A stretch of DNA of 64,000 bases from Alphaproteobacteria bacterium MedPE-SWcel (GTDB lineage: Bacteria > Pseudomonadota > Alphaproteobacteria > Rhodobacterales > Rhodobacteraceae): positions 1 through 64,000 of the forward strand of contig MPDC01000021.1 in the NCBI GenBank assembly GCA_001874255.1, written 5' to 3'. The translations under genes and the position numbers were made by a program. Every line of letters begins with the position of its first letter. The first letter of the stretch is position 1. This document shows, piece after piece, positions 29,325-49,464 of the stretch. The notes beneath the pieces are model-generated. The model was not told the origin of the DNA. It did no database searches and saw only the letters and a program-made list of their open reading frames with translations.

Positions 29325-29736
29325 TATGGGCTCTGCTTCCTGCGAGACGTTAACGACCGTGGGCATCTGACAATCGCCCCTGATCCTAACGGTTTGTGAT
29401 CGAAGTGCAATCTCGGCCAGGCCAAAGACCGTCTCCGCATGGCCCATCTGTGTTCTACGCAATGGCAATGTGGCACTGACTGACCTCCGGCCTGCATGCC
29501 CGTCGAGGTCACGATCACCAACCGGGAGGCGGCCCGTCAGTTTCATCTCGGGCAGCGGTGCTTCCCGCATCGGAGCCTCGCATAGACACACTGGCAGAAC
29601 CGGCCTGGCGCAGCGCACAAAAAATAGACAAATAAAATCCGTTCTGCACTATTGAAAGAAATTTCCGGGCTTCGCTCACATAGATGTAGCGTTGGATAAA
29701 AATTTTCCCTTTGGTAAAATAATTGGGAGATCAGGA
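29325..29736. other. Divergent intergenic region, marR / deaminase operon
   Basis: This 412-bp gap separates the minus-strand marR gene from the plus-strand deaminase operon. I find no convincing gene. The last 100 bp before the deaminase are AT-rich, as expected for a promoter, and GGGAGA lies 6 nt before the chosen ATG. Confidence 0.45.
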
Positions 29737-31038
29737 ATGCTCGATATTATCGTCAGACAGGCAAATCTGCCAGATGGCCGTGGCCCTTTGGACATCGCGA
29801 TCCAAGGCGACAAAATCGTTTCAATAGAGACGCATATCGACGCCGAAGCGCGTGAAGAGATTGACGCGAGCGGACGGCTCGCCTGCCCTCCCTTTGTTGA
29901 TCCACATTTTCACATGGATGCCACGCTGAGTCTTGGCACCCCGCGGCTCAACGTGTCCGGGACCCTTCTTGAAGGAATAGCGCTCTGGGGCGAACTCAAA
30001 CCGTTGCTGACACCGCAGGCCGTCATGGAACGTGCCTTGCGGTATTGCGATCTGGCCGTTTCCCAAGGCCTGCTGTCGATCCGCAGCCACGTCGATATCT
30101 GCGATGACAGGCTGACAGCCGTCGATGCGCTGGTCGAAGTCCGCAAACAGGTCGCGCCCTATATTGACCTGCAGCTCGTCGCCTTTCCTCAGGACGGCCT
30201 GTACCGGTCGCCCAATGCCGAAGCTAACCTCCTGCGGGCGCTCGACATGGGCGTGGATGTGGTGGGTGGCATCCCGCATTTCGAACGCACCATGGCCGAT
30301 GGGGCCCGGTCGGTCACGCGCCTCTGCGAGATCGCGGCAGAGCGCAATCTGATGCTGGACCTGCATTGTGACGAAAGCGACGATCCCCTGTCGCGTCACG
30401 TCGAAACCCTCGCGGCAGAATCGACCAGACTCGGTATCGGATCACGCGTTGTGGCCAGTCACGTGACCGCTATGCACTCATATGACAACTACTATGCGAC
30501 CAAGTTGATCCCGCTGATTGCAGAAAGCGGGATACATATTGTCCCGAACCCGCTCATCAACATCACCCTTCAGGGTCGTTCCGATACATATCCGCGGCGG
30601 CGCGGTCTGACCCGGGTGCCCGAGCTGCGGGCGGCGGGGGTCAACGTGGCGTTTGGCCAGGATTGCACCATGGATCCGTGGTATTCGTTGGGCTCGGCCG
30701 ATATGCTCGAGGTTGCGCATATGGCCGTGCACGCGGTTCCCATGACCTCCCGCGAGGCGATGGAATGGACGTTCACATCCGTGACCCAAAATGGCGCGGC
30801 GGCACTGGGTCTGCCCGACCCTACCCTCCGACAGGGAGGACCGGCAAATCTGGTGGTTCTGCAGGCCCGCGACCCCATTGAGGCCGTGCGGCTGAAAGCG
30901 ACCCGGCTCGCAGTCATCAAACACGGTAGAATCCTCTCACGTACGGCGCCGCGCCTGGCCAGCCTCACGCTGCCCGGCCGGACGCAAATGCTAGATCCCG
31001 CGGCCTATGCGCCAGTGGCATCTGATCCGCTCAATTGA
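29737..31038 (+). CDS. codA: Cytosine deaminase family amidohydrolase
   Basis: This 433-residue metal-dependent amidohydrolase follows E. coli CodA closely, offset by four residues: metal ligands His57, His59, His210 and Asp309, plus catalytic Glu213 and His242. It would deaminate cytosine or a close analogue in the cytoplasm. The residue after the metal Asp is Cys310, where E. coli has Asp314; this position borders the pyrimidine C5 side, so the true substrate may be a 5-substituted cytosine such as 5-methylcytosine. I chose the ATG at 29737 (GGGAGA upstream). It opens an operon with a BMP-type ABC importer and an amidase. Confidence 0.85.
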   Translation: MLDIIVRQANLPDGRGPLDIAIQGDKIVSIETHIDAEAREEIDASGRLACPPFVDPHFHMDATLSLGTPRLNVSGTLLEGIALWGELKPLLTPQAVMERALRYCDLAVSQGLLSIRSHVDICDDRLTAVDALVEVRKQVAPYIDLQLVAFPQDGLYRSPNAEANLLRALDMGVDVVGGIPHFERTMADGARSVTRLCEIAAERNLMLDLHCDESDDPLSRHVETLAAESTRLGIGSRVVASHVTAMHSYDNYYATKLIPLIAESGIHIVPNPLINITLQGRSDTYPRRRGLTRVPELRAAGVNVAFGQDCTMDPWYSLGSADMLEVAHMAVHAVPMTSREAMEWTFTSVTQNGAAALGLPDPTLRQGGPANLVVLQARDPIEAVRLKATRLAVIKHGRILSRTAPRLASLTLPGRTQMLDPAAYAPVASDPLN

Positions 31039-31070
31039 CTTCACTGTAGACCCGCAAAAAGGAAAGCCCC

Positions 31071-32054
31071 GTGAAACCAGCCGTAAACCGCCGCCAACTG
31101 CTTGTTGGTGCTACCGCCACACTCGCCCTGCCTGCCTATGTCCGCCACGCCGGTGCGCAATCGCTCACACGGGTCGCAGGCGTCCACATGTCCCCGGTCG
31201 AAAACGCCTGGAACAGCCGCATCCATTTGGCGTTTCAGACCGCCGCCGAGGCTGGGCTCATCACATATGAATTCTCGGAGGGCGTCGCGCCGACGGATTA
31301 TCCCCGTGCCATGCGTGAATATGCCGAGAGTGGCGCACAGCTGATTTGGGGCGAATCCTATGCAACCGAGCGTGAGGCCCGCGAGGTCGCGGCCGACTAC
31401 GCGGACACCGCCTTTCTGATGGGGTCCTCTGGTGGCCCACAGGGCGACAATTTCGGCGTCTTTGGCACCCGCAATCACGAAGCGGCCTATCTGTCCGGTA
31501 TGCTGGCCGGAAAAATGTCCGAAACCAATGTATTCGGCTCGGTCGGCGGGTATCCAATTCCCGAGGTCAACCTGCTGATCAATGCGTTCCGCGCCGGCGT
31601 CCGCGAGGTCAATGCCGATGCAACATTCGTGAATGGCTTTATCGGTGCATGGTTCGATCCTGCGCGCGCGAAAGAGGCCGCGATGGCCCAAATCGATGCC
31701 GGTGCAGATATCCTGTTCGGGGAGAGGATCGGCACCGCAGATGCGGCTCAGGAACGCGGTATCAAGGCAATCGGTTCCCTCATCGACTATACGCCCCGAT
31801 ATCCCGGCACCGTCTTTGCCAATGCGATTTGGAACTATGGCCCGACGATCGAGGCAATCGTTGCCGACATTCAGTCAGGTAAACCGGTCGGGCGCGACTA
31901 TACCGAATATTCGTTCATGGCCCATGGCGGCAACGAATTGATCTATGTGGCCGAGGATGTCCCTGCGGATGCAATTCCTCCCATGGAGGCCAAGGAGGCA
32001 GCAATTCGCTCGGGTGCCTGGGATGTTCCCATCGACAACGACGAACCGGCGTAA
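31071..32054 (+). CDS. BMP-family ABC substrate-binding protein
   Basis: This 327-residue exported protein belongs to the BMP/PnrA family, whose known ligands are mostly purine and pyrimidine nucleosides or related bases. The N-terminus NRRQLLVGATATL is a twin-arginine-type signal, so it may be exported folded. Family landmarks include the region around GVFGTRNHEAAYLSGMLAGK. The start is GTG with AAGGAA upstream, 32 bp after the deaminase. With the two permeases and the ATPase downstream it forms a complete importer, probably delivering the deaminase substrate. Confidence 0.88.
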   Translation: MKPAVNRRQLLVGATATLALPAYVRHAGAQSLTRVAGVHMSPVENAWNSRIHLAFQTAAEAGLITYEFSEGVAPTDYPRAMREYAESGAQLIWGESYATEREAREVAADYADTAFLMGSSGGPQGDNFGVFGTRNHEAAYLSGMLAGKMSETNVFGSVGGYPIPEVNLLINAFRAGVREVNADATFVNGFIGAWFDPARAKEAAMAQIDAGADILFGERIGTADAAQERGIKAIGSLIDYTPRYPGTVFANAIWNYGPTIEAIVADIQSGKPVGRDYTEYSFMAHGGNELIYVAEDVPADAIPPMEAKEAAIRSGAWDVPIDNDEPA

Positions 32055-32066
32055 ACGCAGTCCGGT

Positions 32067-33428
32067 ATGAACGATGCCACAGCCCTCGCTGCGGCCATTG
32101 CCGACGGGCGCACCAGCGCCTGCGCGGTGATGGAGGCAACATTGGCCGCTTGCGAAACGCAGGCGGCTCTTGGGGCTGTGGTCCATCTCGACACGGCGTT
32201 GGCCCGCGACCGGGCCCGCGCTGCGGACGCAACGCCCGGGGAAAAGAGAGGCCCGTTCCATGGCGTTCCTTTCCTGGCAAAAGACCTTGGTGCAGCGGCC
32301 TCCGGCCTCCCTGTCGCGGCCGGATCGGCAGCATTGCGCGCCAAAGCCGAAATCCCCACGACCAACAGCCACCTGTTCCAGGCCTTCGGCGATGCCGGGC
32401 TGCTGGCCTTCGGAGTGACGGCCACGCCGCCGTTTGGTCTTGCGCTCAGCAGCGCCCCGCAGGACCGTCCGGAGGCCCGCAACCCCTGGAACCCGGCGCT
32501 CACTCCGGGGGGATCATCCGGAGGGGCCGCCGCCGCCGTCGCCAGCGGCCTCGTGGCCATTGCTCATGCAACAGATGCGGCGGGTTCGATCAGGGTGCCC
32601 GCGGCATGCTGCGGGCTGGTTGGGCTCAAACCGTCTCGCGGGGCGGTTCCCGGAGGCCCTGACTTTGGCAACCACCTGATGGGGTTGGCATCCGAATTGG
32701 TGCTTGCGCGCTCCGTCCGCGACGTCCGATCCGCCCTTGAGGCCGTTCACCTGCCGCTGCCGCCCGTCGCGCCTCCCACGCGGACGCGCATTGCTCTGGT
32801 GCGGCCCGAGCGCTGCGACGCAACCCAGTTGCGCGCGGTGCAGGCCGCCGCCGACGCCCTGGCGGATGCAGGGTGTCACATCACTGAGGCCACCGCGCCG
32901 GATGCAATGGGCCAGGAGGCGCATGACATTGCCCGTCGCATTCTGTCTGTTTCGCTGGCCGAATGGATGGCGGCCCTTGAGATCCCTGATGACGCTCTGC
33001 CTGCTCTGGCAGCCAGCGTTGTGGCCGAGGGGCGCGCAACCTCCGCCGCCCAGCTGTTCGCAAGCGCACGTCAAATGGCCAGCCTCTCCGAGAGTGCCCA
33101 TCGCGCCCTGTTTGCACAGGCCGATGCGGTGCTGATGCCGGTCCTTTCGTCTTTTCCGCCACCTGTCGGAGCGCTGGAGATGACCGATAGCGATCCCGAC
33201 GCTCATTTTGCCCGCATGGAGCACTTTGCCCCCAATGCGGCCCTTGCCAATGTGGCCGGGTTTTGTGCCATTGCCCTGCCCTTCGGCATGGCGGATCAGC
33301 TGCCGCTGGGCGTGCAGTTGCTGGGCGCTGCCGGCTCTGATTTTCACCTGTGCCAACTCGCCGCCCAGATCGAAGCCCGCGCCCCGACGATTGCCTTCCC
33401 AGGGCCGATAGCAGGCCTGCCGACATGA
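32067..33428 (+). CDS. Amidase-signature family hydrolase
   Basis: The 453-residue protein has the amidase signature with its Ser-cisSer-Lys triad: Lys in FLAKDLG (about residue 72), the GGSSGG loop, and Ser in DAAGSIRVPA. It hydrolyses a C-N amide bond in the cytoplasm; the substrate is not evident. It lies between the binding protein and the ATPase gene and overlaps the latter by ATGA, so it belongs to the operon and probably acts on the imported compound or a breakdown product, for example a carbamoyl or ureido intermediate. It is not the glutamyl-tRNA amidotransferase GatA by context. Confidence 0.82.
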   Translation: MNDATALAAAIADGRTSACAVMEATLAACETQAALGAVVHLDTALARDRARAADATPGEKRGPFHGVPFLAKDLGAAASGLPVAAGSAALRAKAEIPTTNSHLFQAFGDAGLLAFGVTATPPFGLALSSAPQDRPEARNPWNPALTPGGSSGGAAAAVASGLVAIAHATDAAGSIRVPAACCGLVGLKPSRGAVPGGPDFGNHLMGLASELVLARSVRDVRSALEAVHLPLPPVAPPTRTRIALVRPERCDATQLRAVQAAADALADAGCHITEATAPDAMGQEAHDIARRILSVSLAEWMAALEIPDDALPALAASVVAEGRATSAAQLFASARQMASLSESAHRALFAQADAVLMPVLSSFPPPVGALEMTDSDPDAHFARMEHFAPNAALANVAGFCAIALPFGMADQLPLGVQLLGAAGSDFHLCQLAAQIEARAPTIAFPGPIAGLPT

Positions 33429-34948
33429 CCGGTCCCGTCCTGGAAATGCATCAGATCACCAAACGCTTTGGCTCCTTTACGGCCATCGACGATGTGACCT
33501 TGACCCTTGGCGAGGGGGAAATTCTGGCGCTGCTCGGGGAAAACGGGGCCGGCAAGACCACCTTGATGAATATTCTCTTCGGTCACTATGCGGCAGAGGC
33601 GGGACGCGTCCGCGTTCTTGGCACGGATCTCCCGTCTGGCCGGCCGCGCGCCGCGATCGAGGCAGGTGTCGGCATGGTCCACCAGCATTTCGCGCTGGCC
33701 GGGAACCTGACGGTCCTGGACAATGTCATGCTGGGGTCGGAATCGCTCTTGCGGTTGCGCTCCGCGCGGGCCGACGCGCGGCGGAAACTACTCCGGATCG
33801 CAGATCGTTTTGGCCTGCCGGTAGACCCGGAGGCACAGGTGAACCGCCTGTCCGTGGGGGAACGCCAGCGTGTCGAGATCCTCAAGGCATTGTACCGCGA
33901 TGCGCGTGTTCTCATCCTCGATGAACCCACCGCCGTGCTGGCACGCCCCGAGGCCCAGCGCCTGTTTGAAACCCTTCGCGAAATGGCAGCCGAAGGGCTG
34001 TCGCTGATCTTTATCAGCCACAAGCTGCAAGAGGTCATGGCAGCCTCGGACAGAGTCGCGGTTCTGCGCAGTGGCCAGATGATCGCGGAACGGAACACGG
34101 CCGAAACCAGTGCCGAAGAATTGGCGGAATTGATGGTGGGGCGCAAAGTCACCCGGCCCGTCCGTCAGGCTCATCCCCTCGGCGCACCGGTATTGGTGGC
34201 ACGCAACCTCAGTATTGACGACGCTGGGGAAACGCAGTTGCAGGATGTCTCTTTCACCGTGAACGAGGGTGAAATCCTCGGCATTGTCGGTGTGTCCGGA
34301 AACGGTCAGGCCACGCTGAGCCGGATGCTGTCGGGGCTTGTGAAACCGACGTCTGGAACGATGACATTGTCCGGGACGGATATCCGTATGCTCGGCCCGC
34401 GCGGGCTGATTGCTGCGCGCGCGGGACGCGTGCCCGAGGATCGACTGGCCGAGGGCGTCGTTGCCGATTTGGCCGTTTGGGAAAACGCCATTCTCGAACG
34501 GATCAGAACCCCCGCGTTCTCACGTCATGGCTTTGTCCGTCGCGCGGCCGCCAAGGCCTATGCGACCGAGCTGATCACCCGCTTCGACATTCGCGGCGCA
34601 ACACCCGAGACACGCACCGGGCAGCTTTCGGGGGGCAACGTGCAAAAGCTGATCCTGGGACGATGCCTGTCAATCGGCCCGAAGTTCATTCTCGCGAACC
34701 AACCCACCCGTGGCCTTGATGAAGGTGCGATTGCAGCCGTACATGAAACATTGTTGGAGGCCCGCAGTCAGGGCGCCGCGATCCTGCTGATCTCAGAGGA
34801 ACTGGATGAAGCCGTGGCCCTGTCTGATCACATTCAGGCCATCGTCAAAGGGCGTCTGTCGAAACCCGTCCCCTCCGCCGAGGCGAACGCACAGAAACTG
34901 GGGTTGATGATGGCCGGAATTTGGGAGGGTGACGACCATGCGGCTTGA
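33425..34948 (+). CDS. ABC importer ATPase with two nucleotide-binding domains
   Basis: This 507-residue protein drives the BMP-type importer. The first domain is complete: Walker A LLGENGAGKTT, signature LSVGERQRVE, Walker B VLILDEPTA. The second is degenerate at Walker A (GVSGNGQATLS, no Lys) and has LSGGNVQKL, the normal asymmetry in sugar and nucleoside importers of this class. The ATG at 33425 overlaps the amidase stop codon; its end overlaps the first permease gene. Confidence 0.92.
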   Translation: MTGPVLEMHQITKRFGSFTAIDDVTLTLGEGEILALLGENGAGKTTLMNILFGHYAAEAGRVRVLGTDLPSGRPRAAIEAGVGMVHQHFALAGNLTVLDNVMLGSESLLRLRSARADARRKLLRIADRFGLPVDPEAQVNRLSVGERQRVEILKALYRDARVLILDEPTAVLARPEAQRLFETLREMAAEGLSLIFISHKLQEVMAASDRVAVLRSGQMIAERNTAETSAEELAELMVGRKVTRPVRQAHPLGAPVLVARNLSIDDAGETQLQDVSFTVNEGEILGIVGVSGNGQATLSRMLSGLVKPTSGTMTLSGTDIRMLGPRGLIAARAGRVPEDRLAEGVVADLAVWENAILERIRTPAFSRHGFVRRAAAKAYATELITRFDIRGATPETRTGQLSGGNVQKLILGRCLSIGPKFILANQPTRGLDEGAIAAVHETLLEARSQGAAILLISEELDEAVALSDHIQAIVKGRLSKPVPSAEANAQKLGLMMAGIWEGDDHAA

Positions 34949-35981
34949 GCGGCGGTCCCACGTCCCCCTGCACATCGTTTTCATCGCACCGGTGGCTGCT
35001 GTCTGTGTAGCCCTGTCTCTTGCGGCCGGGTTGATCGCGGCAGCAGGCGTGAACCCTCTCACCGCATATATGGAGTTGTTGCGCGGGGCGCTCGGCTCGC
35101 GTTTGTCGATTTCCGAAATGTTGACCAGAGCCACGCCCCTGATTTTCACAGGTCTTGCCGCAGCCGTCGCGTTTCGAGCCCGACTGTGGAACATTGGCGC
35201 CGAGGGGCAATTCTTCATGGGGGCCCTGATGACGGCCTGGGTCGGGCATTCACTTTCCCTGCCGGGGCCGCTCGGCGTCGTCATTCTGATGCTGCTCGGG
35301 ATGGTTGCCGGGGCTGCGCTTCTTGCCGGACCCGCTGTGATGCGCCTGCGGTTCGGGGTGGACGAAGTGGTCACCACCCTGTTGCTGAATTTCATCGCCC
35401 TCCTGTTTGTCGGATTGATGATCGAAGGCCCGCTGCGCGATCCTCTGGCGTTCGGCTGGCCCTCGTCTGTTCCCGTCGATGGGGCCTACCGGTTGCCCGA
35501 TCTCATCCCTCGCACGCGTCTTCACTACGGTCTGATTGTCGCAATCGGTGCTGCGGGCGCCGTCTGGCTGCTCTTTTCGCGTACGGTTTTCGGCATGGAG
35601 TCCCGCGCCACCGGCCTGAGCGCGCCTGCGGCCAGATTTGCGGGCATTTCCCTGCCTGGAACGCTCATGGGGGTCGCTGTTTTGTCCGGCGCGCTGGCGG
35701 GCCTGGCCGGGTCCGTAGAAGTGCTCGGGGTGACGGCCGGTGTAACCACGACCATGTCGCCAGGTTTTGGCTACGCAGGCATCGTGGTCGCGATGCTTGC
35801 CGCGTTGCAACCGGCCGGGGTCGTCGGATCCGCCATATTCGTCGCGACGATCTTTGTCGGGGCCGATGCCATGAGCCGCGCCACCGGCGTGCCGAGTTTT
35901 ATCGCGGATGTCATTGTGGCGCTTTGCCTTCTGTCGATGCTTGTTGCGCTGCTATTCACTACTCATCAGGTGCGCAGATGA
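34938..35981 (+). CDS. BMP-type ABC importer permease 1
   Basis: This 347-residue integral membrane protein has about eight to ten helices of the BPD_transp_2 family. RNMP-type features include the region LWNIGAEGQFFMGAL, which contacts the ATPase and is typical of nucleoside importer permeases. The ATG at 34938 has GGGAGGG upstream and overlaps the ATPase gene by 11 nt. It pairs with the permease encoded next, whose start overlaps its stop codon. Confidence 0.9.
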   Translation: MRLERRSHVPLHIVFIAPVAAVCVALSLAAGLIAAAGVNPLTAYMELLRGALGSRLSISEMLTRATPLIFTGLAAAVAFRARLWNIGAEGQFFMGALMTAWVGHSLSLPGPLGVVILMLLGMVAGAALLAGPAVMRLRFGVDEVVTTLLLNFIALLFVGLMIEGPLRDPLAFGWPSSVPVDGAYRLPDLIPRTRLHYGLIVAIGAAGAVWLLFSRTVFGMESRATGLSAPAARFAGISLPGTLMGVAVLSGALAGLAGSVEVLGVTAGVTTTMSPGFGYAGIVVAMLAALQPAGVVGSAIFVATIFVGADAMSRATGVPSFIADVIVALCLLSMLVALLFTTHQVRR

Positions 35982-36919
35982 TCGACGCAATAGAACTGTT
36001 GCTGAACACAAATCTGTGGGCCGCTGTCCTGCGGATCGCAACGCCGCTGATCTTCGGCGTCCTCGGGGCATTGCTGTGCGAACGCGCAGGCGTGCTGAAC
36101 CTCGGAATTGAGGGGATCATGACCATGGGCGCCATGACCGGATGGCTGACCGTCTTTTTGGGGGGCGACCTCTGGATGGGGCTCATGGTCGCCGCAATCG
36201 CAGGCGGGTTGATCGGGCTGCTGCATGCGGGGCTGACTGTGCCGCTCGGTCTGTCACAGCATGTATCCGGTCTCGGCATTACCTTGTTGGCCTCGGCGGT
36301 GTCCTACTACATCTTCCGGCTGGTTGTGGACGTCGGCAATCTGCCCCCCACAATCGAGCCCTTCCGCGCCGTTGACATTCCCTACCTGTCGGATCTGCCC
36401 GTCATAGGTGCCATATTATTCTCGCAGACAGCCCCGACCTATCTGGCGCTGATGGCCGTCGTGGTGATGGCCTACATTCTGGCGCATACCCCGCTCGGGA
36501 CCGCCATCCGCATGACCGGAGAGAACCCACATGCGGTCGAGGCACAGGGCCTGAACCCCATGCGCATCCGCATCGGCGCGGTCGTTGCCGGATCCGCCCT
36601 GATGGCCGTCGGAGGCGCGTTTCTGACGACCGCGGCCTTCAACAGCTTTTTCCCCGAGATGGTACAGGGGCGCGGATGGATATGCATCGCATTGGTGGTC
36701 TTTGCCTCCTGGAAGCCCGGAAAAGCGCTGGTTGGGGCGCTGCTGTTCGCCTTCTTTGATGCCTATCAACTCCGTCTGCAGACTGTGATCGACGGGGTAC
36801 CATATCAGCTCTTCCTGATGGCACCCTACGTCCTGTCCATCGTCGCCCTGGTCCTGGTCGCGCGCCGGGCGCAGGTTCCGGCCGCCCTCATGGCACCCTA
36901 CAGACGCGGCGAACGATAG
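35978..36919 (+). CDS. BMP-type ABC importer permease 2
   Basis: The second permease (313 residues) has the same fold, with the paired motif VLNLGIEGIMTMGAMTGW. It starts by ATGA overlap with permease 1 and is the last gene of the operon. Together with the BMP protein and the double ATPase it makes a full importer, probably for nucleosides or nucleobases given the deaminase. The 145 bp that follow contain no terminator that I can recognise. Confidence 0.9.
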   Translation: MIDAIELLLNTNLWAAVLRIATPLIFGVLGALLCERAGVLNLGIEGIMTMGAMTGWLTVFLGGDLWMGLMVAAIAGGLIGLLHAGLTVPLGLSQHVSGLGITLLASAVSYYIFRLVVDVGNLPPTIEPFRAVDIPYLSDLPVIGAILFSQTAPTYLALMAVVVMAYILAHTPLGTAIRMTGENPHAVEAQGLNPMRIRIGAVVAGSALMAVGGAFLTTAAFNSFFPEMVQGRGWICIALVVFASWKPGKALVGALLFAFFDAYQLRLQTVIDGVPYQLFLMAPYVLSIVALVLVARRAQVPAALMAPYRRGER

Positions 36920-37064
36920 GGCCTGCGCCGCAGACCCAGGGGCTACCATCAGACGCGTCACAGCGGGAGAGGCCGAGGCCATTTTGCCGGCCATCGGCGC
37001 TTCGGGAGGTGGAACTCCAAATCCTGAATTGCCAAACGCCCAGTTTTTCGGCAGTTTTATTCAG

Positions 37065-38192
37065 ATGGAGACCCTTCAATTCACACACAACACTTTGCTC
37101 GTGGTGATGTCGGGCGTCGTGGCGCTGGCTGCGGGGTTCACCGGTCTGTCCCTGACCCGGAACCTGTCGCAAAAGACCGTGACGCAAAGAAAGTTCTCCG
37201 TGGCTTTGGCAGCAGTGGCCCTGGGCGGGGGTATTTGGTCCATGCATTTCGTGGCAATGCTGGGTCTGCAACTGCCGGTGCAGTTCTTTTATGACGCGGC
37301 CCTCACGCTGATTTCGGCGCTGACGGCGATCCTGATCGTGGGGGCTGCGTTGATCCTGCTTCATTTCACAAAACGGACCCCGCAGATGATCGCGCTGGCC
37401 GGCACCATCGTCGGCGGCGGCGTCCTTGTGATGCACTATATCGGGATGGCCGGGCTTGAACTCTGCCGCGCCATCTACACGCCATTCGGCATAATCATGT
37501 CATCCGGTGTTGCAATCGGCCTGTGCATACTGGCCTTCGGGGTTGCCTACGGCCAACGCACAAACCGGAACATCTTTCTCGGCACATTGTGCTTTGCGAT
37601 CGCCGTCTGCGCGGTTCATTTTCTGGCGATGGCCGGAACCAGCTTTGTATCCGAAGCACCCGTGATGGATTTCGGCCCGAGCATGAGCAATGAGGTGCTG
37701 GCGCTCGGGGTGATCCTGTCGAGCTTTGTCATTTTCGGGGCTTTCCTGTTGGTCAGCATCACCTATCTGGTGCCCGCCTCCACTCCGGCAGAGGATACCC
37801 CCGCCCCTGCGGAGGCAATACGCCCCTCCCACAGCGGCGACTTGCACATCCCCTGCGAACGCGATGGGATCAAGGTTTTCGTCCCCTTCAGTGACGTCGC
37901 AATCGTGCGCGCAGATGGCCATTACACCCAGATCTATACCGAACAGGATCGGCTGTTCTGCGCCTGGCCGATCACCGAGGCGACCAAGCGGCTCTTGCCT
38001 GCCGGATTTCTGCAGACGCATCGCAGCTACCTGATAAACCCGGCGAAGGTGGCCCAGTTCGAGCGGACCAAAGACAAGGGCCGCTGCATCTTTGAGGCGA
38101 CAGGCCTGCCCCCGGCACCGGTCAGCCGTTCAAAGCTGCACGCGATACAAGATGCGTTGACGCTCCCGGTCGGCGCAACTCGTGCAGGATAG
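37065..38192 (+). CDS. MHYT sensor with LytTR DNA-binding domain (CoxC/CoxH-like)
   Basis: The protein (375 residues) has an N-terminal membrane domain with three MHYT-type motifs (MHFVAM, MHYIGM, VHFLAM) in which His and Met residues are thought to hold a metal, possibly copper, that could sense a diatomic gas. The C-terminal part (about 255-370) is a LytTR DNA-binding domain (IVRADGHYTQIYT, then LQTHRSYLINPAKV). The same pairing is found in CoxC and CoxH of the Oligotropha CO dehydrogenase cluster. It lies 111 bp before coxM and most likely controls it. The start is uncertain; I took the ATG at 37065, though no strong binding site precedes it. Confidence 0.85.
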   Translation: METLQFTHNTLLVVMSGVVALAAGFTGLSLTRNLSQKTVTQRKFSVALAAVALGGGIWSMHFVAMLGLQLPVQFFYDAALTLISALTAILIVGAALILLHFTKRTPQMIALAGTIVGGGVLVMHYIGMAGLELCRAIYTPFGIIMSSGVAIGLCILAFGVAYGQRTNRNIFLGTLCFAIAVCAVHFLAMAGTSFVSEAPVMDFGPSMSNEVLALGVILSSFVIFGAFLLVSITYLVPASTPAEDTPAPAEAIRPSHSGDLHIPCERDGIKVFVPFSDVAIVRADGHYTQIYTEQDRLFCAWPITEATKRLLPAGFLQTHRSYLINPAKVAQFERTKDKGRCIFEATGLPPAPVSRSKLHAIQDALTLPVGATRAG

Positions 38193-38214
38193 CGCGCATT
38201 TCGTGCAATATGGC
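38180..38214. promoter_or_regulatory. Direct repeat, likely LytTR operator of the cox operon
   Basis: TCGTGCAGGATAGC (38180-38193) and TCGTGCAATATGGC (38201-38214) match at 12 of 14 positions with a 21-bp period, two helical turns. LytTR regulators typically bind two direct repeats spaced in this way. The repeats straddle the end of the MHYT-LytTR gene and lie 90-124 bp upstream of coxM. Confidence 0.7.
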
Positions 38215-38303
38215 TGTCTTTCACGAGTTTTCTGAAGCCATCGCGGATCTTCGACTGCAACCTACTGGATAGCGAGACAGTGAGCTTCCAGGGAGGAGAG
38301 CCA

Positions 38304-39158
38304 ATGATTCCAGCGGCATTTGAATATTACAGACCAAGCGATTTGGCAGGGGTCATTGAACTCCTTGAAGAACACGGAGACGACGCCCGCGTCATGGCCG
38401 GCGGGCACAGCCTGATCCCGATGATGAAGCTGCGGATGGCAGACGTCCCGCATCTGATTGACCTGCAGGGCATCTCCGGTTTGTCGGATATCACCATTGA
38501 TACGGAGAGCATCCGGATTGGCGCGCTGGTCACGCAGACCAATATCATCTGTCATGAGGATCTGGCGGCAGCGGCGCCCATCCTGCGCGAAACCGCTCTG
38601 CAGATCGCGGATCCCCAGGTCCGCAACATGGGCACAGTCGGCGGCAATGTCGCCAACGGCGATCCCGGCAACGACATGCCGGGCCTGATGCAATGCCTGA
38701 ATGCCAGCTTTACCCTGATCGGTCCCGATGGCGAACGCAATGTCGCCGCACGCGATTTCTATGAGGCGGCCTATATGACCGCCCGCGAAGACGACGAGGT
38801 GCTGACCGCCGTCACGATCCCCTTGCCGGAGGGCGGCTACGCCTATGAAAAGCAAAAGCGCAAAATTGGCGATTATGCCACCGCCGCGGCGGCCGTGCAG
38901 ATTACCAAGATCGGCGAGACTTGTGCCTCCGCATCCATCGCGATGACCAATCTGAGCGACATCCCGGTTTTTTCCGAGGCCGCCAGCACCGCGCTGGTCG
39001 GGACATCTGTCGACGATGCCGCCCTGAAGGCGGCAGTCGGCGCAATGCTGGGCGATATCGACCCGACCGAGGATAACCGCGGTCCCGTCGCGTTCAAAAA
39101 ACACGTGGCCGGCGTCATTCTGCGCCGCGCGATCCTGCGTGCCTGGTCGCGCGCGTGA
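38304..39158 (+). CDS. coxM: CO dehydrogenase medium (FAD) subunit
   Basis: CoxM carries FAD and passes electrons from the iron-sulfur subunit to the respiratory chain. The 284 residues contain both FAD-contact motifs, AGGHSLIP (about 32-39) and [15 protein letters not shown] (about 111-125). GGAGGAG precedes the ATG. It is the first structural gene of the operon; coxS follows after 11 bp. Confidence 0.94.
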
Positions 39159-39169
39159 GGGAGGGAAAA

Positions 39170-39664
39170 ATGTCCAATAAAATGCACATCAAGCTGAACG
39201 TGAACGGCAAGGCCGAAGAATTCCTGGCCGAACCACGGGAATTGCTGATCTACACCCTGCGCGAGCGTCTCAATATCACCGGCCCGCATATCGGCTGCGA
39301 AACTTCCCATTGCGGGGCCTGCACCGTGACCATCGATGGCAAATCCGTCAAAGCCTGCACCATGTTCGTCGCCCAGGCCAACGGTGCCGAGGTCACCACG
39401 ATCGAGGGCATCGGCGGTCCGGACGACCTGCATCCGCTGCAGACCGCGTTCAAGGAACACCACGGGCTTCAGTGCGGATATTGCACGCCGGGGATGATCA
39501 CCCGCGCGACCAAGCTATTGGAGGATATCCCCAACCCGACCGAAGAGGAAATCCGCTTCGGAATGGCCGGAAACCTGTGCCGCTGCACCGGATATCAGAA
39601 TATTGTGAAATCCATCAAAGCCGCCGCCGCCGAGATGAATGCCGCGAAGGAGGCTGCAGAATGA
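39170..39664 (+). CDS. coxS: CO dehydrogenase small (2Fe-2S) subunit
   Basis: CoxS holds two 2Fe-2S clusters. The N-terminal plant-type cluster uses the cysteines in [11 protein letters not shown] and the later KAC; the C-terminal cluster uses CGYCTPGM and NLCRCTGYQ. The 164 residues are the usual length. The ATG at 39170 is preceded by GGAGGG; the stop overlaps the coxL start by ATGA. Confidence 0.96.
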
Positions 39665-42078
39665 AGGACGAAGTCGAAAGCCGCGATGATCGCGTCGCCA
39701 ATCTCAAAGGCATGGGATGTTCCCGCAAACGGGTCGAGGACGCTCGGTTCACCCAAGGCAAAGGCAACTATGTCGATGACATCAAACTGGATGGCATGCT
39801 GTTTGGTGATTTTGTCCGCTCCCCCTATGCGCATGCACGTGTGGTCAGCATCAATACCGAAGAGGCGCTGAAGGTTCCGGGTGTTCTGGCAGTGCTGACC
39901 GCGGCCGATCTGGAACCCCTGGGGCTGCACTGGATGCCCACCCTGGCCGGTGACAAACAAATGGTGCTGGCAGATGGCAAGGTTCTGTTCCAGGGTCAGG
40001 AGGTCGCATTTGTCGTGGCCGAAGACCGCTATGCCGCCGCCGATGGGATTGAGTTGGTCGAAGTCGAATATGACGAGCTTCCGGTGATCGTCGATCCGTT
40101 TGAATCGCTGAAATCGGATGTTGTCCTGCGTGAGGATCTCGACCCGAAGGCCGACGGCGCCCATGGGCCCCGCAAGCACCACAATCACATCTTCACCTGG
40201 GATGCCGGCGACAAGGAGCCCACCGAACAGGTGCTAGCCGAGGCCGACGTGGTCGCGACCGAATCCATGTACTACCATCGCACCCACCCCTGCCCGTTGG
40301 AAACCTGTGGCTGTGTCGCCTCGATGGACAAGGTCAATGGCAAGCTGACGCTGTGGGGCACCTTTCAGGCACCGCACGCAATCCGCACCGTGGTCTCGCT
40401 CATCTCCGGTATTGAAGAGCACAACATCCGCGTGATTTCGCCCGATATCGGTGGCGGCTTCGGCAACAAGGTCGGCGCCTACCCGGGCTATGTCTGTTCT
40501 GTCGTGGCCTCCATCGTGACAGGCAAGCCGGTCAAATGGATCGAAGACCGGATGGACAACCTGATGACCACCGCCTTTGCGCGGGATTATCACATGACCG
40601 GCAAGATCGCGGCCACCAAGGACGGCAAGATCACCGGCCTGCACTGCCATGTGACCGCTGACCACGGCGGCTTTGACGCCTGCGCGGACCCGACCAAATT
40701 CCCGGCCGGCTTCATGAATATCTGCACCGGATCCTATGACATCCCGACCGCCTACCTCGAGGTGGACGGCGTCTACACCAACAAGGCCCCCGGCGGTGTC
40801 AGCTATCGCTGTTCCTTCCGCGTGACCGAAGCCGTGTATTTCATCGAGCGGATGATAGAAGTCCTCGCGATCGAGCTGAACATGGATGCGACAGAGCTGC
40901 GCCGGATCAATTTCATCAAGAAGGAGCAGTTCCCCTACAAGGCCGCCCTGGGGTGGGAATACGACAGTGGCGACTATCACACCGCCTGGGACAAAGCCCT
41001 GAAGACAGTCGATTATGAGGGGTTGCGCGCCGAACAGGCCCAACGGGTCGAGGACTTCAAGGCCGGGAAAACCCGCACGTTGATGGGCATCGGTCTGAGC
41101 TTCTTTACCGAGATCGTCGGCGCCGGACCGGTCAAGAACTGCGACATTCTCGGGCTTGGCATGTTTGACAGCTGCGAGATCCGCATCCACCCCACCGGCT
41201 CCGCCATCGCGCGGCTTGGCACTATTTCCCAGGGACAGGGCCACGCGACCACTTTCGCGCAAATCCTGGCCTCGGAAATTGGCCTGCCTGCCGACAGTAT
41301 CACCATCGAGGAAGGCGACACCGATACCGCCCCCTACGGTCTGGGCACCTACGGGTCGCGCTCCACTCCGGTGGCCGGGGCTGCGACCGCGATGGCCGGG
41401 CGCAAGATCCGCGCCAAGGCGCAGATGATCGCGGCCTATCTGCTCGAGGTTCACGACAATGACGTGGAATTCGATGTGGATCGTTTCGTCGTCAAGGGCG
41501 CGCCGGAGCGGTTCAAGACCATGAAGGAGATCGCCTTTGCCGCCTATAATCAGGCCATTCCGGGGATCGAGCCGGGGCTTGAGGCCGTCAGCTACTATGA
41601 CCCGCCGAACATGACCTATCCCTTTGGCGCATATGTCTGTGTGATGGACATCGACGTCGATACCGGCGTGCCGGAAATCCGCCGCTTCTACGCGCTGGAC
41701 GACTGCGGCACGCGGATCAACCCGATGATCATCGAGGGCCAGGTTCACGGCGGTCTGACCGAGGCGCTCGCGGTCGCTTTGGGTCAGGAAATCGCCTATG
41801 ATGACATGGGCAACGTCAAGACCGGAACCCTGATGGACTTCTTCCTGCCGACCGCGTGGGAGGTGCCAAACTACGAGACCGACTTTACCGTCACCCCCAG
41901 CCCGCACCACCCCATCGGGGCCAAGGGCGTCGGCGAAAGCCCCCATGTGGGCGGCGTGCCGTGTTTCTCCAATGCGGTGCAGGATGCGTTCCGCCCCTTT
42001 GGAAACCGTCACACCAACATGCCGCATGACCATTGGCGGATCTGGCAGACGGCCAACAAACTTGGCCTGCACGGATAG
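39661..42078 (+). CDS. coxL: Aerobic CO dehydrogenase large subunit, form I
   Basis: CoxL oxidises CO to CO2 at a molybdenum-copper site with molybdopterin cytosine dinucleotide. The 805 residues contain SYRCSFR at 381-387. The Cys-Ser-Phe-Arg loop with Cys384, the copper ligand, is diagnostic for form I enzymes (canonical AYxCSFR), so this is a true CO dehydrogenase and not a form II relative; the first residue is Ser rather than Ala. The conserved GAKGVGE segment with the base Glu lies near the C-terminus. It is followed by coxD, E, F and G maturation genes. Confidence 0.96.
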
Positions 42079-45769: not shown

Positions 45770-47341
45770 TCATTGGCCAAAGAGCGCGATCAACCCATCC
45801 GCATATGCTCCGCGCCAGACAAAGCCATCGTGACCGGCGCGATATTCGCGCCAATGGCTCTCTGCTCCCAAAGCGCGAAGAACGCCATGGACCTGCCGCG
45901 ACGTTTCGCGAATTTCATATTGGCCATCGCTGCTGGTCTCGAAATGACCCGCAGCAATGAATGCCCGCAGCTCCGCCGCATCTCCCTGCGCAATCAGCCT
46001 GTTGGCCACATAGCAAAGGCCATTGTCCGCGCGCTCCTGCCCCTCTGGCGACCACCAGTAGGACCCCGACAGCGAGATCACCGCCCCAAAGCGCTCTGGC
46101 TGATCCAGCGCGGCGTTGGTTGACCCGATACCACCATAGCTTGCACCGGCAAGCACGGTGCGTTCGCGGTGGTGCGCCATGCCGAATTTACCAAGGACAT
46201 GCGGCAGGAGTTCATTGGCAAGGAAGGCGCTGAATTTCGGATTGCCCGGCAGCTCTGCGCCGCGGTGCGCGACATCGATCGGATCGACGAACACGGCCGC
46301 CACCGATGGCAGCGCGCCGGAGAGGGTCAGGTTATCCAGCATGCCAGGGATCTGCAGTTCCGAGATCGCGCGCGGCCCGTCGAACATGAAAAGCAGGATC
46401 GCATTCTGATCGGCAGGGTCAAAACCCGGCGAGCGATAGAGGCTCACCGCCCGCGTATTGCCGAGGATCTCGGAAGTGAAATCTTCCGTTCTGAGGTAGG
46501 ATTTCGCGCTGGGGTCGACTGGGAATCCCGGCTGTACCGGCGCGTCCCTCAGGCTGACGGTGGACCATTGATGCCAGCGGTCAGAGGCGTCCGGCGGCCA
46601 AGGGGAGGGATTGGCGGGATCTGCAGCTGCGGTTGCAAGAATGGCAATCCGCTTCTGGCGCCAGGGCGCGTCGAACTGCGGTACATCCGGCGCCAGGCGG
46701 TAGGACAGCCGGGTGTCCCAGGGCACTTGGTAGCTCTTGAACCAGATATCAGTGGTCCCGAGCCGGTTCAGCCAGTCGTGATCCGAGGAGGGTCCCCCCA
46801 ACAGGCGCACATTGTGCAACGCCCCCCGGTACAGAAAGGTGAGCATCGCCTTCTCCCCCTCCCCTTCGACGAGCGGAGTGCCATTGGCCGCGAGTTGGGT
46901 CCAGATTGCATCTTTGCTTTTCCCGGCCGCCAGCTGTTTTTCCGCCTCGCGCAGAGCCGGACTGTCGGGAATGGATGTCGGAGCGGTTTGATCCGCGTTC
47001 AACGGCCGTCTCGTCAAGTGAAGGTCATAGGCCGCGCCTTCAGCCCCGACGAGCTCCAGCCTGCTTTCCTCTGTCTGGGCCACGAAATGAACCCGCTCGG
47101 CCCCTCCGGTTGCTTGCGCCAACAAACGCATCCGGGGCTGCTCTGCCTCATTCTGATACAGGGACAGATCCTGTCCCGTCAGGGTGCCACTGAAATACTC
47201 CCCGGCGCGGGCCTCCAATTCGATGACGATGCTGTCCTGCGAAATCGTTCCACGGACGGACACATCCTGCCCAAAGGCCTGAAGCGGCAGGGTCATGGAC
47301 CCCACCGCCGCAGCCAGTGCCAACTGTCTCACCCGAGGCAT
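45770..47341 (-). CDS. Periplasmic Fes/Cee-like siderophore esterase
   Basis: This 523-residue protein has a signal peptide (about 23 residues, ending LQAFGQ) and an alpha/beta-hydrolase domain of the enterochelin-esterase class: nucleophile Ser401 in GASYGG and catalytic His504 in AGHDGF. It would cut trilactone siderophores such as enterobactin. Unlike cytoplasmic E. coli Fes, it is exported, like Campylobacter Cee, which hydrolyses the siderophore in the periplasm before uptake of linear fragments. It overlaps the receptor gene by one base (TGATG), which shows coupling and fixes the start at 47341. Confidence 0.85.
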   Translation of the reverse strand: MPRVRQLALAAAVGSMTLPLQAFGQDVSVRGTISQDSIVIELEARAGEYFSGTLTGQDLSLYQNEAEQPRMRLLAQATGGAERVHFVAQTEESRLELVGAEGAAYDLHLTRRPLNADQTAPTSIPDSPALREAEKQLAAGKSKDAIWTQLAANGTPLVEGEGEKAMLTFLYRGALHNVRLLGGPSSDHDWLNRLGTTDIWFKSYQVPWDTRLSYRLAPDVPQFDAPWRQKRIAILATAAADPANPSPWPPDASDRWHQWSTVSLRDAPVQPGFPVDPSAKSYLRTEDFTSEILGNTRAVSLYRSPGFDPADQNAILLFMFDGPRAISELQIPGMLDNLTLSGALPSVAAVFVDPIDVAHRGAELPGNPKFSAFLANELLPHVLGKFGMAHHRERTVLAGASYGGIGSTNAALDQPERFGAVISLSGSYWWSPEGQERADNGLCYVANRLIAQGDAAELRAFIAAGHFETSSDGQYEIRETSRQVHGVLRALGAESHWREYRAGHDGFVWRGAYADGLIALFGQ

Positions 47342-49464
47342 CAGAAGGCAAAGTCCAGAGACGCTGTTACCGTCCGCCCGGTGCCTACGAAACATGCGTA
47401 GACGGACGCGCAGGAGGCGGCGTAGAACTCATCCGTCAGATTGCGTATGTTCACCTGCGCCTTCATGCCCTCTAGCGACGGATTGCCTGCGCCGAAATCA
47501 TAGCTCAGCGCCAGATCAAACAGGGTGACATCCGGGACCGTAAAGCTGTTCGCCCCGTCGCCCTGGCTTTCGCCGATATAGCGCACACCCGCGCCGAGCC
47601 CGAACCCATTGTCCATTTCATAGTTCGCCCAGATGGACGCCTGATGGCCCGGCAGGCGCGAAGGCGTTTTCCCGACTTCGTCCGAACGGATGGACTCGGC
47701 CACGGTGGCATCCAGATAGGAATATGAGGCAATGACATCCAGTCCTTGGGCAAGCTCCATCCGGCCTTCGAACTCGAAACCCTGGCTGTCGATCTGACCG
47801 GTCTGCTCATATCCGCCGAGGCTCGAATTGTAGTTCAGCACGCCCGTCTGTGTGATGTCAAAGATGGCAGCCTGGGCAAAGAAACGCCCGTCCTGGGACA
47901 GCCACTTTACCCCCGCCTCGATCTGTTCGCCTTCGGTTGGGTCAAAGGCCGGGTTCCCTGCCAGCGGCGACTCTGTCACCGGCTCGAAGCTGGTCGCATA
48001 GCTGATATAGGGCGCGACGCCATTGTCGAAAGTATAGAGCGCCCCGATATGGCCCGTCAGCGCAGTGTCGTCAAAGCTCGACACGCTGTTGCCGATGTTG
48101 TCGGTGATCTCTGTGTCAAACTTGTCCAGTCGCAGACCGGCAGAGAGCTGCAGCGCCCCCAGTTCGATCCGGTCCGACACATAGATGCCCGACTGGCGCG
48201 CAACGGTATCTGTATCGCTCTGCCGATCGGTCAGCGGATAGTCGGCCGGGTTGAGACCATAGGCAGGATCACGCCAGTTGAGCGAGGGCACCGAGAAGTT
48301 GAACCCCCAGGCGTAGTCCCGCTTGTTCTGTTGCATGTCGAGACCCACAAGCAATGTGTGGTCGGCGGCGCCGGTGCTGAACCTCGTCTCCACGCCGACA
48401 TCCAGCGTCAGTTGGAACAGATCGTCGGTGCCGCCCGAGGCGGTCCGGGAAATGGTTTCCTCATCGGCCGCGAGCGATCCCCAGGTCAGGGTGCGGTACT
48501 CTGACGTGATGTCGGTCGCCCGGAAATTCGCGCGCAGCTGGCTGCTTGCACCGAGATCCTGTTGATACTGAACCGACACTGCATTGGTATAGCGTTCGGA
48601 TTTCTGGAAACTGGGGTCCGAAATCAGGAATTCGGCGGGAATATAGCCGAAGGCGGTCGGGTCGACCGTGCCGAGTTTCTCGCGGAAGTTCCGAAACCCT
48701 GCTTCGGGATCGCTCTGGCTCAACACGGAAACGGTCAGGCTACGACTGTCATCCGGCGCCCAGGTCAATGACGGCATGAAAGCATATCGACGCTGTTTCA
48801 GCCCATCTTCCGGAGTATCTGCCTGCCATGCGGTCCCCGCAATACGCCAGCTCAGCGTATCGTTATCGGCAAAAGTGCCCCCCATATCGAAGGACAGCTC
48901 GGCACGGGCGTCGGATCCGACAGCGACGCGTCCCCGGCGGAAGGAGTCCCCCGTCGGACGCTTTGTCGCAAGATTGACAATTCCGCCCGGATTGGCCTGC
49001 CCGTAAAGCACGGAGGCCGGGCCCTTCACCACCTCAACCCGCTCCAGCAGCCAGGGGTCTATCTGGCCAAACGAATTGGTTCCGAACGCCAGCCCATCGA
49101 CAAAGCGGGGCACATAGCCGAACCCACGCACATACATCTCATCATGCAGATTGGAGGTGCCGCGATACTCGGTAAAGACGCCCGGCGTAAAGCGCAGCGC
49201 CTCGGCAACTGTCTCGGCACCCTGGGCCGCAATCTGATCAGCGGGAACGACGTTCACCATCTGGTCGATCTTTGTCAACGCCACCCCGGTCTTGGTTCCA
49301 CTGCTGCTCGTCTTGGCGATATAGCCCTCGACGGGTCCGGCCGGATCTTCGCCAGCGACGTTGATCGGCTGAAGTTCAATTACGTCCTGCGCATAGGCGG
49401 TCAGCGGCAGCGCAACCGTCATCATCAGCGCAGCAAAAGCCGCGCGGCTCCCAACTCTGGTCAT
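47341..49464 (-). CDS. TonB-dependent ferric-siderophore receptor
   Basis: This 707-residue outer-membrane receptor has a signal peptide (about 25 residues), a TonB box-like VIELQPINV, a plug domain (about 60-165, with LLERVEVVKGPASVLYGQ and NPGGIVNLATKRP) and a beta-barrel ending in aromatic SLDFAF. The C-terminal pair of cysteines in YAASCASVYACF is typical of FhuA/FoxA-type receptors. The ATG at 49464 has AAGGGGA upstream. It is translated with the periplasmic esterase and is divergent from an AraC regulator. The receptor class suggests hydroxamate or mixed siderophores, whereas the esterase suggests a trilactone. Confidence 0.92.
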   Translation of the reverse strand: MTRVGSRAAFAALMMTVALPLTAYAQDVIELQPINVAGEDPAGPVEGYIAKTSSSGTKTGVALTKIDQMVNVVPADQIAAQGAETVAEALRFTPGVFTEYRGTSNLHDEMYVRGFGYVPRFVDGLAFGTNSFGQIDPWLLERVEVVKGPASVLYGQANPGGIVNLATKRPTGDSFRRGRVAVGSDARAELSFDMGGTFADNDTLSWRIAGTAWQADTPEDGLKQRRYAFMPSLTWAPDDSRSLTVSVLSQSDPEAGFRNFREKLGTVDPTAFGYIPAEFLISDPSFQKSERYTNAVSVQYQQDLGASSQLRANFRATDITSEYRTLTWGSLAADEETISRTASGGTDDLFQLTLDVGVETRFSTGAADHTLLVGLDMQQNKRDYAWGFNFSVPSLNWRDPAYGLNPADYPLTDRQSDTDTVARQSGIYVSDRIELGALQLSAGLRLDKFDTEITDNIGNSVSSFDDTALTGHIGALYTFDNGVAPYISYATSFEPVTESPLAGNPAFDPTEGEQIEAGVKWLSQDGRFFAQAAIFDITQTGVLNYNSSLGGYEQTGQIDSQGFEFEGRMELAQGLDVIASYSYLDATVAESIRSDEVGKTPSRLPGHQASIWANYEMDNGFGLGAGVRYIGESQGDGANSFTVPDVTLFDLALSYDFGAGNPSLEGMKAQVNIRNLTDEFYAASCASVYACFVGTGRTVTASLDFAF

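What the first reader, a model, noticed from the sequence alone, without database searches (positions are those of the whole stretch)
37065..38214. MHYT-LytTR regulator with matching 21-bp direct repeat ahead of coxMSL
The regulator combines a membrane MHYT domain, proposed to bind a metal and sense a gas, with a LytTR DNA-binding domain. Two 14-bp direct repeats exactly 21 bp apart lie between it and coxM, the spacing expected for LytTR sites. This gives a concrete, testable one-protein model for CO-responsive control, in which a membrane protein binds the promoter directly.
Basis: partly seen in the sequence, partly recalled or inferred. Interest (0 to 1): 0.7.

Follow-up and report, generated by a model that had tools for sequence, protein, structure and literature searches.

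The report
CO-sensor regulator and its coxM operator
A marine bacterium carries a membrane-bound regulator of an already described carbon-monoxide-sensing type (CoxC) right beside the genes it probably controls, and the short repeated DNA site it is expected to bind is kept at the same place in most related bacteria that have these genes.

Summary
ORF 37065-38192 is MHYT-LytTR, followed by form I coxMSL. Two 13-bp units (38174, 38195) lie 21 bp apart; the first overlaps the end of coxC; a weak third unit follows 20 bp on. The one-protein model is not new: CoxC of Afipia carboxidovorans was shown in 2024 to be a CO- and copper-responsive MHYT-LytTR repressor on direct repeats (PMC11347149). I add comparative evidence. 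The pair stands before coxM in 77 of 77 selected loci. A strict pattern occurs once in the 4.08 Mb genome. Among 295 family genomes it matched in 50: 47 just upstream of coxM (70 genomes have coxM), 3 in genomes without coxM; the reversed pattern matched none. With a looser score, 67 of 69 testable coxM loci have a pair; the two without lack a CoxC hit, but one genome without a CoxC hit keeps a weak pair. In four genomes where coxC is not beside coxM, the site stays at coxM. A. carboxidovorans has a candidate site before coxM that the text I read does not mention. Not shown: binding, CO response, promoter position, sign of control.

The parts
37065..38192 (+). coxC: MHYT-LytTR regulator, 375 aa
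   Evidence: Pfam; 80 related loci; predicted model mean pLDDT 88.0, pTM 0.65
37065..37766 (+). membrane part with the MHYT repeats: seven predicted helices, residues 10-234
   Evidence: Pfam MHYT; helices in the model; membrane placement itself not computed
37845..38159 (+). LytTR DNA-binding domain, about residues 261-365
   Evidence: Pfam; strands in the model; Foldseek matches to LytTR structures
38174..38186 (+). operator unit R1, CGCAACTCGTGCA, inside the last codons of coxC
38195..38207 (+). operator unit R2, CGCATTTCGTGCA
38215..38227 (+). weak third unit R3, TGTCTTTCACGAG, 20 bp after R2
   Evidence: in the window; a third core is best at +20 or +21 in 35 of 77 loci
38304..39158 (+). 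coxM, medium subunit: the gene the operator stays with
   Evidence: Pfam; displaced-coxC genomes
39170..39664 (+). coxS, small subunit
   Evidence: Pfam
39661..42078 (+). coxL, large subunit, form I (SYRCSFR)
   Evidence: TIGR02416 above cut-off; motif in the translation; start codon
42130..45624 (+). coxD, coxE, coxF, coxG maturation genes
   Evidence: OM5 coxD region matches the window coxD (61%); VWA_CoxE; coxF only sub-cut-off XdhC-type hits and coxG no hit, so both named by gene order

Best explanation
This is the roseobacter form of CoxC and its operator. CoxC sits in the membrane through seven helices carrying the MHYT motifs; its LytTR domain reaches into the cytoplasm and binds, probably as a multimer, two strong 13-bp units and one weak unit spaced 20-21 bp (two turns of DNA) upstream of coxM. 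CO binding at a metal held by the Met/His residues changes DNA binding and so switches transcription of coxMSL and the genes behind it. By homology with the A. carboxidovorans protein the likeliest sign is repression relieved by CO. I found no such site before coxC itself in this family, so CoxC does not appear to control its own gene through this element. Shown here by computation: domains, the repeat, its conservation, its rarity in genomes, and that it stays with coxM. Inferred: binding, CO and metal sensing, sign of control.
For: Pair of units at 20 or 21 bp before coxM in 77 of 77 selected loci. Spacing left free between 13 and 40 bp: 20 or 21 in 21 of 24 further distinct loci, 16 of 19 outside the family. 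Strict pattern once in the own genome, reversed control 0. Family survey of 295 genomes: 50 matches, 47 of them 87-135 bp before coxM, reversed control 0. Of the 23 coxM genomes missed by the strict pattern, 18 have a pair of at least 15 bits at 20/21. Site kept at coxM where coxC is not beside it: 3 of 4 genomes, the fourth having coxM cut short, and one more with coxC on another contig. No other pair of 15 bits or more in 810 kb around 80 coxC genes. R1 lies outside the coxC frame in 52 of 77 loci, so coding does not explain it. Homologue tested experimentally (PMC11347149).
Against: No binding or expression data for this organism. Identity to the tested CoxC is 30-32%. The third MHYT motif has lost its Met and Tyr (V184 in 81 of 81, F186 in 78 of 81) and the following Met is kept in 42 of 81, so metal and gas chemistry may differ. 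The third operator unit is weak. The consensus scan found no sigma-70-like promoter and a motif search for one was ambiguous, so repression is an inference. G776 has a weak pair (16.8 bits) but no CoxC hit. Three pattern matches lie in genomes without coxM.
Confidence: 0.85

Rival explanations
1. Same protein and same site, but CoxC activates coxM when CO is bound, as RcoM is said to do, instead of repressing without CO.
For: The units end roughly 76 bp before the coxM start (coordinates), which could place them upstream of a -35 box; PMC11347149 says that RcoM1 and most LytTR regulators bind upstream of -35 and activate; one of two RcoM-like loci has a TTCGTGCA/TTCGTGTG pair 20 bp apart before coxM.
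Against: The only tested MHYT-LytTR protein represses in E. coli. The promoter was not found here.
Confidence: 0.35
2. The repeat is bound by another regulator, and CoxC merely sits beside it.
For: G776 keeps a weak pair without a CoxC hit.
Against: In the phylum sample, 15 of 18 coxM genomes have the pair and a MHYT-LytTR gene or a contig-edge piece of one; 1 of the other 3 has no MHYT-LytTR gene found and 2 have PAS-LytTR genes. The two family coxM loci without any pair lack a CoxC hit. Core and spacing resemble those reported for LytTR sites.
Confidence: 0.08
3. The repeat is not regulatory but a by-product of the coxC 3' coding end or a terminator.
For: R1 is inside the coxC frame in the window and in 25 of 77 loci in all.
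Against: R1 is intergenic in 52 of 77 and R2 in 77 of 77; the site stays at coxM when coxC is elsewhere; the terminator scan listed nothing at the repeat.
Confidence: 0.03

Closest known systems
CoxC of Afipia (Oligotropha) carboxidovorans OM5, PMC11347149
   Same: MHYT-LytTR architecture, gene directly upstream of coxMSL, direct-repeat operator with a TTNNNGCN core; a candidate pair (17.0 bits) also lies in its own coxC-coxM gap
   Different: 30-32% identity; the studied operator is before coxB, upstream of coxC, with published repeats 29 and 26 bp apart start to start by my mapping of the primers; third MHYT motif intact there; in the window family no further pair was found around coxC
RcoM (PAS-LytTR CO sensor; P. 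xenovorans RcoM1, as described in PMC11347149)
   Same: LytTR domain, cox target, TTCNNGCA repeats; a PAS-LytTR locus found here (L182) has two such cores 20 bp apart before coxM
   Different: PAS sensor instead of membrane MHYT; described in print as an activator
LytTR DNA-binding domains of AgrA and ComE
   Same: Fold: Foldseek 3d6w 1.4e-5, 4cbv 8.9e-5, AgrA 4g4k 1.1e-3; direct repeats about two turns apart (recalled)
   Different: Response regulators, not fused to a membrane gas sensor (recalled)

Membership tests
CoxC subfamily (MHYT-LytTR single-component regulators) | MHYT membrane domain fused to a LytTR domain | tested here: met
   Pfam, both above cut-off; seven helices and a LytTR part in the model
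CoxC subfamily (MHYT-LytTR single-component regulators) | encoded near cox genes | tested here: met
   coxM starts 111 bp after coxC in the window; coxM found after coxC in 77 of 81 loci, the window counted once
CoxC subfamily (MHYT-LytTR single-component regulators) | three MHYT motifs with Met, His and Tyr | tested here: inconclusive
   His kept in all three; OM5 itself has MHF in motif 1; here motif 3 is V-H-F in 78 of 81
CoxC subfamily (MHYT-LytTR single-component regulators) | operator of three direct repeats at a cox promoter | tested here: inconclusive
   two strong units and one weak unit at 20-21 bp; promoter not located; no binding assay possible
CoxC subfamily (MHYT-LytTR single-component regulators) | CO- and copper-responsive DNA binding | not testable with these tools
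   needs purified protein or membranes
RcoM | N-terminal PAS sensor domain | tested here: not met
   Pfam finds MHYT and LytTR only in this protein; the RcoM-like neighbours of L181 and L182 give PAS hits below Pfam's cut-off
Form I aerobic CO dehydrogenase cluster | coxM-S-L gene order and a form I motif in CoxL | tested here: met
   order M-S-L, TIGR02416 above cut-off, SYRCSFR in the translation, a listed form I motif (PMC13203968, passage)

The most novel reading that the evidence does not exclude
Across Alphaproteobacteria the ancestral CoxC operator is a pair or triplet of CGCANTTCGTGCA units 20-21 bp apart directly before coxM, not before coxB. A. carboxidovorans keeps a second, undescribed copy there, and its published operator is mis-registered: the true cores would be TTCATGCG, TTGGTGGA and TTTGGGCA at 21 and 20 bp. 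The same operator geometry is read by RcoM in other bacteria, so a membrane copper-type sensor and a soluble PAS sensor have been exchanged on one conserved cox site.
Probability: 0.4. Interest if true: 0.5.

Novelty: new member of a known kind. Interest (0 to 1): 0.35.

Why it matters
Roseobacters are counted among the important marine CO oxidisers (general knowledge, not from a call). Knowing the likely CO sensor and the exact site for many alphaproteobacteria turns a single-organism result into a general, testable rule: which genomes should respond to CO, which bases to change, and whether marine bacteria control coxMSL the same way as the soil carboxidotroph. The re-reading of the published operator is a cheap and sharp test.

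Tried and rejected
Promoter position: the consensus scan found no sigma-70-like site in 36900-38320; a two-block EM on 61 non-redundant regions gave several solutions of similar likelihood, the best of them next to R2 and R3 and not a clear -35/-10 pair. The sign of control is left open.

Inverted repeat 38177-38193 / 38213-38229: by eye its R3 side is not conserved in the alignments, so I do not treat it as an operator arm. Coding or terminator origin of R1: rejected (and the displaced loci).

Sequence search of the PDB with the whole protein gave no match at 0.01. The fold search recovers LytTR; the MHYT part has only weak matches such as TMEM45A at E 0.02, which I do not interpret. NCBIfam gave only sub-cut-off hits for CoxC.

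Limits of the controls. The 80 loci were picked by similarity and are related; the weight matrix was trained on the 77 with coxM, so the fairer tests are the distant loci and the surveys. I did not check whether the five same-family loci among the 24 are the same species as training loci. The shuffle control kept single-base content only and one strand. Fisher p = 2.7e-33 ignores relatedness. One search printed 30 rows; 6 were repeats of the same genome place (L127, L130, L132, L135, L155, L159) and are left out; 4 more loci had no coxM in the fetched stretch (L093, L129, L163, L164). Exceptions kept in the 24: L088 (best spacing 14; its TTCGTGCA cores 21 bp apart score -0.4 bits), L092 and L156 (best spacing 31). 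Of the 23 coxM genomes missed by the strict pattern: 18 pairs of 15 bits or more at 20/21; G889 9.1 bits at 20; G827 best spacing 29, with a 20-bp pair that I read by eye; G769 cut by a contig end; G750 and G680 none. G680 is only 82% complete. CoxC adjacency was not checked one by one for the 47 strict-match genomes.

Against my re-reading of the A. carboxidovorans operator: the loose core pattern also pairs TTCCCGCA (10180) with TTACCGCC (10201) at 21 bp, so more than one register is possible; the published third repeat lies outside my three units, yet changing it removed residual binding. Against the RcoM comparison: in L181 the loose pattern gave six matches in 330 bp, most of them away from the triplet I name, and with the CoxC matrix L181 and L182 score only 2.5 and -5.6 bits. 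Because of these two points I lowered the probability of the novel reading from 0.5 to 0.4 on recheck.

Full report
What is there. The window holds a MHYT-LytTR gene at 37065-38192 followed by coxM, coxS and coxL of a form I CO dehydrogenase and maturation genes (coxD matched by OM5, coxE; coxF and coxG named by order). As 13-bp units it reads CGCAACTCGTGCA at 38174-38186, inside the end of coxC, and CGCATTTCGTGCA at 38195-38207, with a weak TGTCTTTCACGAG at 38215.

Conservation near by. A scan of genome contigs reported 585 relatives among the stretches it looked at and kept the best 80. coxM was found after coxC in 76 of these 80 and in the window. In these 77 the two best 13-mers lie 21 bp (68) or 20 bp (9) apart, the second unit starting 101-117 bp before the coxM start. 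Most unit positions are at least 90% one base, while flanking positions mostly are not, apart from an A-rich stretch just after R2. Taking the best third core among offsets 14 to 40 after the second unit, it falls at +20 or +21 in 35 of 77 loci, where 2 of 27 offsets would give about 6; no comparable peak stands before the first unit. Around the 80 coxC genes (810 kb, both strands, spacings 20 and 21) the only pairs of 15 bits or more are those before coxM, in 76 of 76 loci with coxM; a mono-nucleotide shuffle gave none. So I found no site of this kind before coxC itself.

Whose site is it. In three genomes where coxC has no coxM within the fetched flanks (L020, L070, L075) the only match of the strict pattern in the genome lies 94-101 bp before coxM; in the fourth (L080) only residues 40-284 of coxM were matched and there was no pattern match. 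In G330 coxC is on contig C4 and coxM on C5, and a pair (40.6 bits, 20 bp) is at coxM. R1 is outside the coxC reading frame in 52 of 77 loci, R2 in all 77. The site therefore goes with coxM.

Surveys that did not start from coxC. In the own genome the strict pattern occurs once and its reverse not at all. Of 295 genomes of the family, 70 have coxM at E <= 1e-95. The pattern matched in 50 genomes, once each, and the reversed pattern in none. 47 of the 50 matches lie 87-135 bp before coxM on its strand; 3 are in genomes without coxM, none of which has a CoxC match. For the 23 coxM genomes missed by the strict pattern I fetched the upstream DNA: 18 have a pair of at least 15 bits at 20/21 bp, one a 9.1-bit pair at 20, one has best spacing 29 with a 20-bp pair read by eye, one is cut by a contig end, and two have none. 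A CoxC match lies upstream in 19 of the 23. The two without a pair (G750, G680) have no CoxC match at E <= 1e-10; G776, with a weak pair, has none either, which speaks against a strict rule; nor has G769, the one cut by a contig end. In 398 genomes of the phylum, 18 have coxM at E <= 1e-75. Fifteen have a pair of at least 26.9 bits at 20/21; in 13 of these a MHYT-LytTR gene was seen, in G070 only a contig-edge MHYT piece and in G585 only a contig-edge LytTR piece upstream of coxM. Of the other three, G532 gave no MHYT-LytTR match and G588 and G628 have a PAS-LytTR (RcoM-like) gene beside coxM.

Further away. In 24 distinct additional loci, spacing left free from 13 to 40 bp, the best pair is at 20 or 21 bp in 21; outside the family in 16 of 19. 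One of these is A. carboxidovorans OM5 (plasmid pHCG3): CGTATTTCGTGCA then, 20 bp on, TGCTTTTGGTGAC, in its coxC-coxM gap. This and a pair inside the published PcoxB fragment are the two pairs listed for its 25 kb (17.0 and 18.7 bits, spacings 18-22). The parts of PMC11347149 that I read describe only the operator before coxB. In that fragment the cores TTCATGCG (10189), TTGGTGGA (10210) and TTTGGGCA (10230) lie 21 and 20 bp apart. The repeats changed in the published primers, TTACCGCC (10201), TTTGGGCA (10230) and TTGCGGCA (10256), are 29 and 26 bp apart start to start by my mapping, that is 21 and 18 bp between them as the paper says. The first published mutant also changes a G that is nearly invariant in the units here (10206). 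But another 21-bp register exists, and the third published repeat is outside my units although its change removed residual binding, so the re-reading is a proposal.

RcoM comparison. L182 has TTCGTGCA and TTCGTGTG 20 bp apart before coxM; L181 has TTCATGCT, TTCACGCG and TTGGAGAA at 21 and 20 bp, but there the loose pattern matches elsewhere too. Shared operator geometry between CoxC and RcoM is thus likely from the published cores but only thinly supported here.

Mechanism. Of PMC11347149 I read the outline with abstract, parts 1, 3, 4 and 5 of 6 of the text, and passages. It reports that OM5 CoxC represses PcoxB in E. coli, that CO relieves this, that CO releases membrane-bound CoxC from DNA in a copper-dependent way, and that the LytTR part binds. 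I transfer this to the window protein: same domains, seven helices plus a LytTR fold in a model of pLDDT 88.0 and pTM 0.65 (LytTR matches). Cautions: 30-32% identity, and the third MHYT motif has V184 in 81 of 81 and F186 in 78 of 81 family proteins. The promoter could not be placed, so repression is likelier by homology and activation is not excluded.

Novelty. Seven searches of the held open-access library listed one paper on MHYT-LytTR control of cox genes. In PMC13203968, on marine CO oxidisers, a word search found no coxC, LytTR or regulator (passages only), and PMC6011924 calls coxC and coxH a putative signal transduction system (passages only). I found no report of a conserved operator before coxM in these searches, but most subscription papers are not held and the supplement of PMC11347149 was not read. 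The finding is a new member of a known kind with a useful comparative extension.

Noticed in passing
window 37065-38192 (residues 184-189) and L001-L080: Third MHYT motif is degenerate in the family set (V184 81 of 81, F186 78 of 81; following Met 42 of 81) though OM5 has MHYT, so the proposed metal site may differ.
   Followed up: partly
L181:339-1271 (-) and L182:2523-3365 (-): RcoM-like PAS-LytTR genes beside coxM in two genomes outside the class, with TTNNNG cores 20-21 bp apart before coxM: perhaps the same operator geometry with a different sensor.
   Followed up: partly
L207 (G776) and L204 (G827): G776 keeps a weak operator-like pair without a detected CoxC; G827 seems to have an extra unit 9 bp before a 20-bp pair.
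   Followed up: no
L122 (G266): coxC lies about 11 kb from coxM; a pair (26.8 bits, 20 bp) stands before coxM and another (24.1 bits, 20 bp) near by on the opposite strand.
   Followed up: no
window 29692-36919: Upstream of coxC: amidohydrolase, PnrA-like binding protein, amidase, ABC ATPase and permease genes, which look like an uptake and breakdown set unrelated to cox (the second permease-like frame was not searched).
   Followed up: no
window 45770-47395 (-): Esterase with an Enterochelin_N domain facing the end of the cox cluster.
   Followed up: no
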